From positions 744,001-808,000 of the forward strand of contig NZ_JACCAC010000001.1 in assembly GCF_013409425.1 (NCBI RefSeq): a stretch of DNA of 64,000 nucleotides, read 5' to 3'. The notes beneath the pieces were generated by a model. That model saw only the letters and a list, made by a program, of their open reading frames with translations, was not told the DNA's origin and made no database searches. The position numbers and the translations under genes were made by a program. Positions 27,210 through 47,036 of the stretch are shown here, one piece after another. The stretch's first letter is position 1; the number at the start of each line of letters is the position of its first letter. Source of the stretch: Nocardioides perillae (GTDB lineage: Bacteria > Actinomycetota > Actinomycetes > Propionibacteriales > Nocardioidaceae).

Positions 27210-27315
27210 GCGCCCGATCGTGCCGCACCTCGACGCGATGCGCAGGCCGACCGGCCGACCGGGGACCTCCGTCCTGGCCGCGGCGCAGCCGCTCCGGTCC
27301 CGCCCCGGGCTGGAC

Positions 27316-27321
27316 TAGGTT
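27316..27321 (+). promoter_or_regulatory. -10 box of the crotonase gene
   Basis: TAGGTT ends 7 nt before GTG 27329. The promoter is intact although the frame contains a TGA. Confidence 0.5.
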
Positions 27322-27328
27322 GCCGCGG

Positions 27329-28096
27329 GTGAGCGTCCACGTGCACCGCGACGGCCCCGTCACCACCGTGACCCTCGACCGCCCCGACGTGCGCAACGCC
27401 GTCGACGGCCCGACCGCGGCCGCGCTCGCCGACGCCTTCCGGGCCTTCGACGCCGACGACGAGGCGGCCGTCGCCGTGCTCACCGGCGCGGGCGGCACCT
27501 TCTGATCCGGTGCCGACCTCGGCGCGGTCGGCACACCGTCGGGCAACCGTGTCGACCCGCTGCCGGCGGACGGCCCGATGGGCCCCACCCGGATGCGGCT
27601 GGGCAAGCCCGTGGTGGCGGCGATCGAGGGCTACGCGGTGGCGGGCGGCCTCGAGCTCGCGCTGTGGTGCGACCTGCGCGTGGCCGCGTCCGACGCGGTG
27701 CTGGGGGTCTTCTGCCGCCGCTGGGGCGTGCCGCTGATCGACGGCGGCACCGTCCGGCTGCCGCGGCTGGTCGGCGCGAGCCGGGCGATGGACCTCGTGC
27801 TCACCGGTCGCCCGGTGGCGGCCGACGAGGCCGAGCGGATCGGCCTGGTCAACCGGGTCGTCGCTCCCGGCGAGGCGCTCGGCGCCGCGCAGGCCCTGGC
27901 CCGCGAGCTGGCGGCGCTGCCCCAGGCGTGCCTGCGCCACGACCGGCTGTCCCTGCTCGAGGCCGAGGGGGTCGAGGAGGAGCAGGCGCTGGTGCGCGAG
28001 CTCGAGCACGGCCTGGTCTCGCTGCAGGAGGTCGAGGCCGGCCTGCGCGCCTTCCGCGGCGGCGCGGGGCGCCACGGCGCCCCGCGCACGTCGTAG
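27329..28096 (+). pseudogene. Enoyl-CoA hydratase/isomerase family gene with in-frame TGA at codon 59
   Basis: Read through, this is a 255-residue crotonase: DRPDVRNAVDGPTAAALADAF, GAGGTF-(TGA)-SGADL, then EGYAVAGGLELALWCDLRVA (oxyanion-hole region) and FCRRWGVPLIDGGTVRLPRL. The TGA at 27503-27505 replaces the residue that is usually Cys (TGC) in FCAGADL. The frame continues intact for 196 codons with normal GC3, so decay is recent, the base is an error, or TGA is decoded. A stem-loop begins 5 nt after it. If not decoded, the product is a useless 58-residue fragment. Confidence 0.85.
27510..27534 (+). other. Stem-loop directly after the in-frame TGA
   Basis: A 9-bp perfect stem GTGCCGACC/GGTCGGCAC with loop TCGGCGC starts 5 nt after the TGA of the crotonase gene. 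Bacterial SECIS elements lie in this position, but their consensus is loose and such stems are frequent at this GC content. Confidence 0.4.
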
Positions 28097-29002: not shown

Positions 29003-30469
29003 GTGCCCGGCCTGCTGGACCGCCACCTCGCCTTCGTCGGCGCGCTGCGGCGCGCCGGCCTGCCGGTCTCGCTCGCCGAGGACCTCGACGCCCTCGACGC
29101 CCTGGGGCGCCTGCCGTGGGACGACCGCGAGACCGTGCGGGCGGCGTACGCCGCGACGGTGCTGAAGCGGCAGGCCCAGCGACCGACCTTCGACGCGCTC
29201 TTCGACCTGTGGTGGCCGCGGCTGGTCGGCGACGGGTGGCGGGGCGACCCGCTGGTGGCGGACGTCGACGACGAGGACGCCGGGGAGGCCGACGAGGGCG
29301 CAGCCGAGGCCGGTGACGGCGGGGCGGGGGAGGACGAGGCGCAGGCCGAGACCGAGGGCGCGGGCCCGGTCCGCGACGGCGGGGCCGCGCTGGCGGCGCT
29401 GCGCGAGCGCCTCGCCGAGGCCCTGGCGGCCGGTGACGACGCCGCCGCCCAGGCGCTGGCGGCCGAGGCGGTGGGCCGCTTCGGGGCGATGCCCGGGCGC
29501 GGGCCGGGGCTGTCGTCGTGGTCGGCCTACACCGCACTCCAGCGGGTCTCACCGGCCGAGCTGGTGGAGCGGCTCGTGCAGGCGCTCGCCGCGGGCGGCT
29601 GGGCCGAGGACGACGCGCGCCGCGCCGCGGTCGAGCGGGTCGCCCGCTTCGAGACGGAGGTCGAGGGCGACGCCCGCCGCCGCATCGCGGAGGAGCGCGG
29701 GCCGCGCCACGTCGCCGACGTCGTGCTGCGTCCGAGCATCGAGCGGCTCGACTTCCTCAGCGCTCGCCGCAGCGACCTGGAGGAGCTGCGCCGCGAGATC
29801 CAGCCGCTGGCCCGGCGCCTGGCGGTGCGGCTCACCAAGGAGCAGCACGCGCGGCGACGCGGACCGCTCGACTTCCGGCGCACCGTGCGGGCGTCGGTCT
29901 CGACCGGCGGGGTGCCGCTGACCACGCACCACCGGCCGAAGCGGCCGCACCGCTCCGAGCTGGTCGTGCTGTGCGACGTGAGCGGGTCGGTGGCCAACTT
30001 CGCGCAGTTCACGCTGCTGCTCGTCTTCGCGCTGCGCGAGCAGTTCACGAAGGTGCGGGCCTTCACCTTCGTCGACCAGGTCGTCGAGGTCACCGAGCAC
30101 TTCCGCCCCGGTGCCGACGTGGTCGACGTGATGACCCACCTCGCGGCGGCCTCGGCGCACGCGGCCCGCTTCGGGCGCACGAACTACGGCCGCGCCTTCG
30201 CCGCCTTCGAGGAGCAGCACGCCGACGCGCTGGGGCCGAGGAGCGCCCTGCTCGTGCTCGGCGACGCCCGCTCCAACCACGCCGACCTGCGCCTCGACGT
30301 GCTCCGCCGCCTCGTCGACGACACCCGCCACGCGTGGTGGCTCAACCCCGAGCACCGTCGGCACTGGGACACCGGCGACTCGGCCGCCCGCGCCTACGGC
30401 GCGCTGGTGCCCATGGTCGAGTGCCGCAACCTGACCCAGCTCGGGGAGTTCGTGCACGACCTGGTCTGA
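29003..30469 (+). CDS. CoxE-like VWA domain protein
   Basis: A 488-residue protein: helical N-terminus, an acidic Glu/Asp/Ala-rich linker (about 90-125), then a VWA domain with metal site D325 in CDVSGS. It matches CoxE, the partner of MoxR/CoxD in maturation of CO dehydrogenase and related molybdo-enzymes; no such enzyme is in this window. GTG 29003 has AGGAGGAG 4 nt upstream and lies 28 nt after moxR, so the two form an operon. Confidence 0.9.
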   Translation: MPGLLDRHLAFVGALRRAGLPVSLAEDLDALDALGRLPWDDRETVRAAYAATVLKRQAQRPTFDALFDLWWPRLVGDGWRGDPLVADVDDEDAGEADEGAAEAGDGGAGEDEAQAETEGAGPVRDGGAALAALRERLAEALAAGDDAAAQALAAEAVGRFGAMPGRGPGLSSWSAYTALQRVSPAELVERLVQALAAGGWAEDDARRAAVERVARFETEVEGDARRRIAEERGPRHVADVVLRPSIERLDFLSARRSDLEELRREIQPLARRLAVRLTKEQHARRRGPLDFRRTVRASVSTGGVPLTTHHRPKRPHRSELVVLCDVSGSVANFAQFTLLLVFALREQFTKVRAFTFVDQVVEVTEHFRPGADVVDVMTHLAAASAHAARFGRTNYGRAFAAFEEQHADALGPRSALLVLGDARSNHADLRLDVLRRLVDDTRHAWWLNPEHRRHWDTGDSAARAYGALVPMVECRNLTQLGEFVHDLV

Positions 30470-46409: not shown

Positions 46410-46718
46410 ATGACCCAGCTCAGCCAGGGCCCGCGCGCCCTGAGCGCGGCGGCCGAGGCCGTGGCCGGCACCCGCGCCGACGTGACCCGAGTCCAGCAGG
46501 AGGTCGCCGGCGACGTCGCTGCGCTCGGCCAGCGCTGGTCCGGCTCGGGTGCGATCGCCTTCCACCGCGTCCACACCGCGTGGCAGGAGCAGCAGTCGCG
46601 GGTGGTCGCCGCGCTCGACGGCTTCGAGGCGGCCCTGCGCGAGACGGAGGCCGACACCGGACGCACCGACGACGACCAGGCCACCGGCTTCGCCCACTAC
46701 GCGTCGCGGCTCGGCTGA
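46410..46718 (+). CDS. WXG100 family type VII secretion protein (first)
   Basis: A 102-residue helical-hairpin protein with the WXG turn as GQRWSGSGAIAF at about residues 42-53 and long flanking helices (ALSAAAEAVAGTRADV; HTAWQEQQSRVVAALDGFEAAL). There is no C-terminal YxxxD/E signal, so it probably leaves as a heterodimer with the next product. ATG has GAGGAGGA 4 nt upstream. Confidence 0.9.
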   Translation: MTQLSQGPRALSAAAEAVAGTRADVTRVQQEVAGDVAALGQRWSGSGAIAFHRVHTAWQEQQSRVVAALDGFEAALRETEADTGRTDDDQATGFAHYASRLG

Positions 46719-46742
46719 GCCCGCCACGAGAGGAGCATCCCC

Positions 46743-47036
46743 GTGCACACCGGCATCCACGTCGACCACGCGGCCCTCGCCGCCACCGCCCAGCATCTGC
46801 TGCTCGGCGCGCGCCGCACCGGCGATCGCCTCGACCGGCTCGAGCAGGAGCTGGCCCCGCTGCGCGGGGAGTGGTCCGGCGCGGCCCGCGGGACCTACGA
46901 CGCGGCGAAGGCGCAGTGGGACGCCGCCGTCGCCGACATGGTCCAGCTGCTCGGGCAGGTCGGGCACGCGGTCGAGGCGGCCGACGCCGCCTACCGCGCC
47001 GCCGACCAGCGCGGCGCCGCCCGCTTCGGCGGCTGA
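46743..47036 (+). CDS. WXG100 family type VII secretion protein (second, with YxxxD signal)
   Basis: A 97-residue partner of the preceding gene, 24 nt downstream. The turn motif is GEWSGAARGTY, and the C-terminal end has YRAAD, fitting the YxxxD/E export signal read by EccC. GTG 46743 has AGAGGAG upstream. The pair probably forms the EsxA/EsxB-like heterodimer. Confidence 0.9.
   Translation: MHTGIHVDHAALAATAQHLLLGARRTGDRLDRLEQELAPLRGEWSGAARGTYDAAKAQWDAAVADMVQLLGQVGHAVEAADAAYRAADQRGAARFGG

What the first reader, a model, noticed from the sequence alone, without database searches (positions are those of the whole stretch)
27503..27534. In-frame TGA at a usual Cys codon of a crotonase, followed at once by a stem-loop
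The reading frame of an otherwise intact enoyl-CoA hydratase has TGA exactly where relatives often have Cys in GTFCAGADL. Its leaderless promoter and 196 downstream codons look unharmed, and a 9-bp stem with loop TCGGCGC starts 5 nt after the TGA, where a bacterial SECIS would be. Selenocysteine, stop-codon readthrough, a fresh nonsense mutation and a base-call error (TGC to TGA) all remain open. The last two are simpler, because this Cys is not known to be catalytic.
Basis: partly seen in the sequence, partly recalled or inferred. Interest (0 to 1): 0.78.

Follow-up and report, generated by a model that had tools for sequence, protein, structure and literature searches.

The report
Ordinary stop codon in crotonase gene
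An actinobacterium carries a stop codon in the middle of an otherwise intact crotonase-family enzyme gene, at a cysteine that all examined relatives keep; although the bacterium can make selenocysteine proteins, the RNA signal that would be needed is missing here, so this is most likely a plain recent mutation or a base error.

Summary
TGA 27503-27505 is codon 59 of a 255-codon PRK08259-type crotonase ORF, and a 9-bp stem (27510-27518/27526-27534, loop TCGGCGC) follows. The genome does make selenocysteine (Sec): selD, tRNA-Sec, selA and selB lie beside a Sec formate dehydrogenase.

The decisive element fails. The host's formate dehydrogenase SECIS (GUCCCC-GGUCU-GGGGAC, loop 18 nt after the UGA, in 30 of 30 loci) scores 76.5 bits with a model built from it; the crotonase site scores -1.2. 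4 of 123 Cys-bearing loci have a stem as long. 0 of 18 other genus members with selA and this gene show an internal stop.

Verdict: the UGA most likely terminates translation (young nonsense mutation, less likely base error). Sec about 4%.

The parts
27329..28096 (+). crotonase/enoyl-CoA hydratase-family ORF (PRK08259 type), 255 codons, interrupted at codon 59
27503..27505 (+). in-frame TGA at a column that is Cys in 123 of 123 other loci
27510..27518 (+). 5' arm of 9-bp stem
27519..27525 (+). loop TCGGCGC; begins 13 nt after the TGA; no G in its first two positions
   Evidence: model limits
27526..27534 (+). 3' arm of 9-bp stem
27316..27321 (+). -10-like TAGGTT, 7 nt before the GTG start (leaderless-type promoter, by eye only)
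27578..28096 (+). 172-aa ORF from the first ATG in frame after the TGA; a restart here would lack the first 83 residues
28111..28974 (+). AAA ATPase gene directly downstream (MoxR-type, name recalled), frame open; lies within 0.8 kb of the crotonase on the same strand in G016, G115, G149, G168 and G210, but far from it in others such as G013 and G205
   Evidence: crotonase coordinates
29003..30469 (+). VWA_CoxE gene, frame open

Best explanation
The TGA is a genuine, recent nonsense mutation at a conserved Cys codon of a dispensable crotonase gene. Translation starts at GTG 27329 and ends at the UGA, giving a 58-residue fragment that lacks everything from the Cys59 motif onward; the gene is a young pseudogene. 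The hairpin after it is an accident of GC-rich coding sequence. Shown: the TGA, the intact remainder, the conserved Cys column, the lack of a SECIS-like element. Inferred: that the UGA terminates, and that the change is real and recent.
For: Among 98 other genus members with a match at E 1e-60 or better, none shows an internal stop in the matched stretch (six rows are flagged with a stop: five carry it at the C-terminal end; for G137 residues to about 242 were read without one). The gene is often missing: 99 of 215 genomes of the genus, own included, have such a match (89 of 191 of the good-quality ones; at most 12 candidates per genome were scored). No hairpin within the bacterial SECIS limits; model score -1.2 against 76.5 bits. 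A stem of 9 bp or more (G-U allowed) in 4 of 123 Cys-bearing loci. TGA at a Cys codon is not improbable: in the orthologue L012, 4 of 9 single-base routes to TGA and 4 of 45 routes to any stop start at Cys codons. In several relatives the gene lies near the same AAA ATPase gene, so it is probably the orthologue in its usual place. It is the only interruption that the coding-signature scan found in 64 kb (two TGAs flagged; the other, 46716, is by eye an ordinary boundary between two genes).
Against: Nothing else in the gene has decayed, so the mutation must be young; the nearest held relative is only 78% identical, so no close strain dates or confirms it. The stop falls on a column that is Cys in 123 of 123 other loci, in a genome that decodes UGA as Sec elsewhere.
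Confidence: 0.64

Rival explanations
1. The base is wrong in the assembly, or was mutated only in the sequenced culture; the living gene encodes an ordinary Cys protein of 255 residues.
For: All 114 strongly conserved columns but this one are intact; no other genome listed shows an internal TGA here; one interruption found in 64 kb.
Against: The genome is one contig, rated 100% complete. Neighbouring codons 60 and 65 also depart from the genus (Ala in 98% and Lys in 91% of 43 other rows), so the local difference is larger than one base. Reads are not available.
Confidence: 0.24
2. The UGA is read through at low or regulated level (near-cognate tRNA, Trp or another residue), giving some full-length enzyme.
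For: Intact downstream frame. PMC7918605 (start of abstract and passages seen) argues that many in-frame stops in bacterial genes are read through, and that many of these events are short-lived.
Against: The TGA is kept in no relative examined. The base after the UGA is U, which I recall as an efficient termination context, whereas the formate dehydrogenase site has UGA-C.
Confidence: 0.08
3. The UGA encodes selenocysteine: SelB and Sec-tRNA act on the hairpin at 27510-27534, giving a selenoprotein crotonase with Sec next to the oxyanion-hole residue.
For: Sec system: selA (406.3 bits, over cut-off), selB (229.9 bits in the genome search, 239.5 for the ORF, cut-off 242.25; directly after selA), tRNA-Sec, selD (402.8 bits, cut-off 125), and formate dehydrogenase with an in-frame TGA. 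TGA/Cys pair at an invariant Cys and intact frame: the SECIS-independent criterion described. One search also says that some putative SECIS do not fit the model.
Against: No SECIS: spacing 13 nt, loop begins UC, no GGUCU; -1.2 bits. 0 of 18 other genus members with selA and the gene show an internal stop. I recall no redox or catalytic role for this Cys; rat enoyl-CoA hydratase has Ala at this place (recalled).
Confidence: 0.04

Closest known systems
PRK08259 / EchA5-type crotonases (PDB 4z0m, 4qfe, 3qka, 3r9q)
   Same: Family hit 398.9 bits over cut-off 273; these four solved relatives align over nearly the whole length, E 1.2e-94 to 4.6e-93
   Different: TGA in place of the Cys that all four have at this column (alignments)
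Actinobacterial formate dehydrogenase (NF041513) of the same genome, with Sec codon
   Same: In-frame TGA in an otherwise open gene; Sec genes adjacent
   Different: Has the GGUCU-loop SECIS at 18 nt (30 of 30 fetched loci), and each of the 54 matches in 209 genomes of the genus holds one TGA; the crotonase has no such element and no TGA-bearing relative
DsbA-like protein form 2, labelled 'crotonase/enoyl-CoA hydratase family protein' in reviews of prokaryotic selenoproteins
   Same: The label only
   Different: The 2022 review's table lists it under PRK06023 (PMC9312934, passage); the 2026 review's table gives PF01323 (a DsbA-type domain, recalled) with motif DxxUP (PMC13188914, passage). I infer that both rows mean the same family and that it is no precedent for a crotonase-fold selenoprotein

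Membership tests
Selenoprotein (bacterial) | Sec machinery in the genome (selA, selB, selC, selD) | tested here: met
   selB at 239.5 bits is just under its cut-off of 242.25 but directly follows selA
Selenoprotein (bacterial) | In-frame TGA aligned to a conserved Cys | tested here: met
   Cys in 123 of 123 other loci
[quoted passage not shown]
Selenoprotein (bacterial) | Resemblance to the host's own SECIS | tested here: not met
   76.5 bits (formate dehydrogenase, in the model's training set) against -1.2 bits
Selenoprotein (bacterial) | TGA-bearing homologues in other Sec-using organisms | tested here: not met
   0 of 18 other selA-positive genus members that hold the gene; no other internal TGA in the 91 of 393 genomes of the class with a match (one terminal TGA, G528)
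Selenoprotein (bacterial) | Selenium in the product, dependent on selB | not testable with these tools
   needs an experiment
PRK08259 crotonase | Profile score above the curated cut-off and conserved columns intact | tested here: met
   (TGA read as Cys)
Pseudogene | Disabling change with no recoding signal found | tested here: met
Pseudogene | Further decay of the frame | tested here: not met
   no other departure in 114 conserved columns; fits only a young lesion
Stop-codon readthrough gene | Stop kept at the same place in relatives | tested here: not met
   nearest relative held is only 78% identical

The most novel reading that the evidence does not exclude
A first crotonase-fold selenoprotein: this lineage has turned an invariant Cys beside the active site into Sec and uses a short-spaced hairpin without GGUCU (loop UCGGCGC at 13 nt) that its SelB accepts beside the canonical formate dehydrogenase SECIS; the local changes at codons 60 and 65 would then be adaptation of the element.
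Probability: 0.04. Interest if true: 0.8.

Novelty: already known. Interest (0 to 1): 0.2.

Why it matters
As it stands it is an ordinary broken or misread gene. It is a useful caution: a TGA at an invariant Cys, with Sec machinery in the genome and a perfect hairpin nearby, still fails once the hairpin is compared with the host's own SECIS and with Cys-bearing orthologues. If the Sec reading were true, it would be a new selenoprotein fold and a second SECIS type in one host.

Tried and rejected
Sec machinery absent: rejected, it is present. Other TGA-bearing orthologues: the flagged rows that I checked carry the stop at the C-terminal end (G008 and G016 paralogues; L051 = G149 and L148; G528, G066, G194, G213; G010); for G137 the stop was not seen, only that residues to about 242 hold none. 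A second interrupted gene in the window at 46716: by eye an ordinary boundary of two small genes. Other SECIS in the genome: only formate dehydrogenase is above noise (76.5 bits, next 16.9; 150 of 13385 first-look candidates scored), but the model is built on near-identical formate dehydrogenase sequences and would miss unlike SECIS. Rfam on 27300-27800: one match below its gathering score, on the other strand. Literature: 'selenoprotein' + 'crotonase' gave 2 papers; 'selenocysteine' + 'enoyl-CoA hydratase' + 'selenoprotein' + 'UGA' gave 3; no crotonase-fold selenoprotein in the passages seen. 'selenocysteine' + 'Nocardioides' gave 5 papers, listing only, none by title about Sec in this genus. 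A search on stops, errors and pseudogenes gave 13 papers, of which I looked into one. The structure model (pLDDT 88.7) left no coordinates in the Python box to measure Cys59-Cys129, so it was not used. In one search I gave the downstream gene in the wrong frame (no hit), corrected; the same gene was stepped in the wrong frame in the background count (548 of 2896), repeated in the right frame (547 of 2896).

Full report
What is there. The window lies in a 3.61-Mb single-contig genome, G000:C1:744001-808000, rated 100% complete. The ORF 27329-28096 reads VSVHVHRDGPV...GGTF*SGADL...; the stop is TGA 27503-27505, codon 59.

The protein. Read through, it is a crotonase (ECH_1) of the PRK08259 type (398.9 bits, cut-off 273); its nearest solved relatives are 4z0m, 4qfe, 3qka (EchA5) and 3r9q, E 1.2e-94 to 4.6e-93, all with Cys at this column. 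I placed codon 59 in 124 loci (18, 25 further, 80, and the window's own). The other 123 carry TGC (110) or TGT (13); only the window has TGA. After removal of near-duplicates (121 rows kept of 124) the window protein departs from one of the 114 columns that are at least 90% conserved, codon 59 itself; the median of the other rows is also one, so it is as well kept as its peers. Among 43 other rows fetched from the genus it departs at 59, at 60 (Ser for Ala, 98%) and at 65 (Gly for Lys, 91%), three neighbours. For three random columns of 255 to fall within seven has a chance of 0.0013, but this was looked at after the fact and the columns were taken as uniform. Ser at 60 occurs elsewhere (16 of 124 rows including the window). 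From memory, this Cys is the residue before the oxyanion-hole alanine of rat enoyl-CoA hydratase, where rat has Ala; no call tested that.

The Sec system is real. selA lies at 1128363-1129646 (406.3 bits, over its cut-off); selB directly after it (229.9 bits in the genome search, 239.5 for the ORF, just below the cut-off 242.25; the next elongation-factor-like hit has 201.5); tRNA-Sec with anticodon TCA; selD (402.8 bits); and a formate dehydrogenase whose frame holds one TGA. In the genus 56 of 209 genomes, own included, have a selA match at E 1e-50, and 54 of 209 have this formate dehydrogenase, each match with one TGA (the place of the TGA was read only in the 30 loci fetched).

The SECIS test. 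The 30 formate dehydrogenase loci fetched (of 54 matched) have GUCCCC-GGUCU-GGGGAC with 18 nt between UGA and loop in 30 of 30. A covariance model of 10 distinct ones finds that site at 76.5 bits in the genome and nothing else above 16.9 bits. Scored without filters on 27400-27700, the crotonase TGA gives -1.2 bits, fifth of 15 weak matches. The published bacterial model asks for a loop of 3-9 nt with G in its first two places, 16-37 nt from the UGA, and -7.5 kcal/mol or lower (PMC13188914, Fig. 2 legend, passage seen); the same passage says that a subset of putative SECIS does not fit. My scan (unbulged stems only) found five weaker hairpins in range, the best at -4.6 kcal/mol, none passing; the formate dehydrogenase site passes; 15 of 123 orthologue Cys codons pass by chance, as do 547 of 2896 codons in six window genes (19%). 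Since chance passes are that common, passing would prove little; the crotonase site does not pass.

The stem is coding sequence. Five of 124 loci, the window included, have a stem of 9 bp or more (G-U allowed) in the 45 nt after the codon; the longest, 12 and 10 bp, follow an ordinary Cys codon (L063, L142). The window ranks 22nd of 124 by folding energy.

No relative examined uses TGA here. Among 215 genomes of the genus 99, own included, match at E 1e-60; of the 98 others none shows an internal stop in the matched stretch (six rows flagged with a stop, five of them terminal, G137 checked only to about residue 242). From the lists (draws of 215 and 209 genomes), intersected, 18 genus members besides the window's have both selA and the gene, none with an internal stop. 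In a class-wide draw 91 of 393 genomes have a match, with no other internal TGA.

What it is. A TGA at a Cys codon is not far-fetched by chance: in the orthologue L012, 4 of 45 single-base routes to a stop and 4 of 9 routes to TGA start at a Cys codon (unweighted). 116 of 215 genomes of the genus have no match at E 1e-60 (some are incomplete and only 12 candidates per genome were scored), so the gene looks dispensable. It lies within 0.8 kb of the same AAA ATPase gene, on the same strand, in G016, G115, G149, G168 and G210, but not in all: in G013 and G205, for instance, the two are far apart (coordinates). The simplest reading is a recent nonsense mutation that ends translation after residue 58; a base error is next. 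Readthrough cannot be excluded: PMC7918605 (start of abstract and passages) holds that in-frame stops in bacterial genes are often read through and often short-lived. Sec is disfavoured but not excluded, because atypical SECIS exist.

Prior work. The search for 'selenoprotein' and 'crotonase' gives two reviews. The 2022 table lists a 'Crotonase/enoyl-CoA hydratase family protein' under PRK06023 (PMC9312934, passage); the 2026 table has 'DsbA-like protein form 2 (crotonase/enoyl-CoA hydratase family protein)', PF01323, motif DxxUP (PMC13188914, passage). I infer that these are one family and do not count it as a precedent for a crotonase-fold selenoprotein.

Limits. No reads, no strain closer than 78% identity in this protein, no expression data. 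The model R1 rests on nearly identical sequences and cannot find unlike SECIS. The split between true nonsense mutation and base error is judgement.

Noticed in passing
L010 3633-11547 (G000:C1 about 1123632-1131546): Compact Sec island outside the window: formate dehydrogenase with in-frame TGA, selD, tRNA-Sec, selA, selB; 56 of 209 genomes of the genus have selA and 54 of 209 this formate dehydrogenase.
   Followed up: yes
window 27503-27523: The window protein's three departures from genus-conserved columns (codons 59, 60, 65) lie together; unexplained.
   Followed up: partly
window 27713-27715 (codon 129): The subfamily has a Cys (GVFCRR), invariant in 27 aligned rows, where, from memory, rat enoyl-CoA hydratase has its second catalytic Glu; PRK08259 proteins may not be ordinary hydratases.
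   Followed up: no
window 46410-47036: Two small adjacent genes in one frame (46410-46718 and 46743-47036), separated by TGA 46716, beside a 1481-aa ORF on the other strand with a GSGKSELL nucleotide-binding motif; looks by eye like a type VII secretion locus.
   Followed up: no
PMC9312934 and PMC13188914 tables: A selenoprotein listed in 2022 as a crotonase family appears in 2026 as DsbA-like with PF01323; an apparent mislabel.
   Followed up: partly
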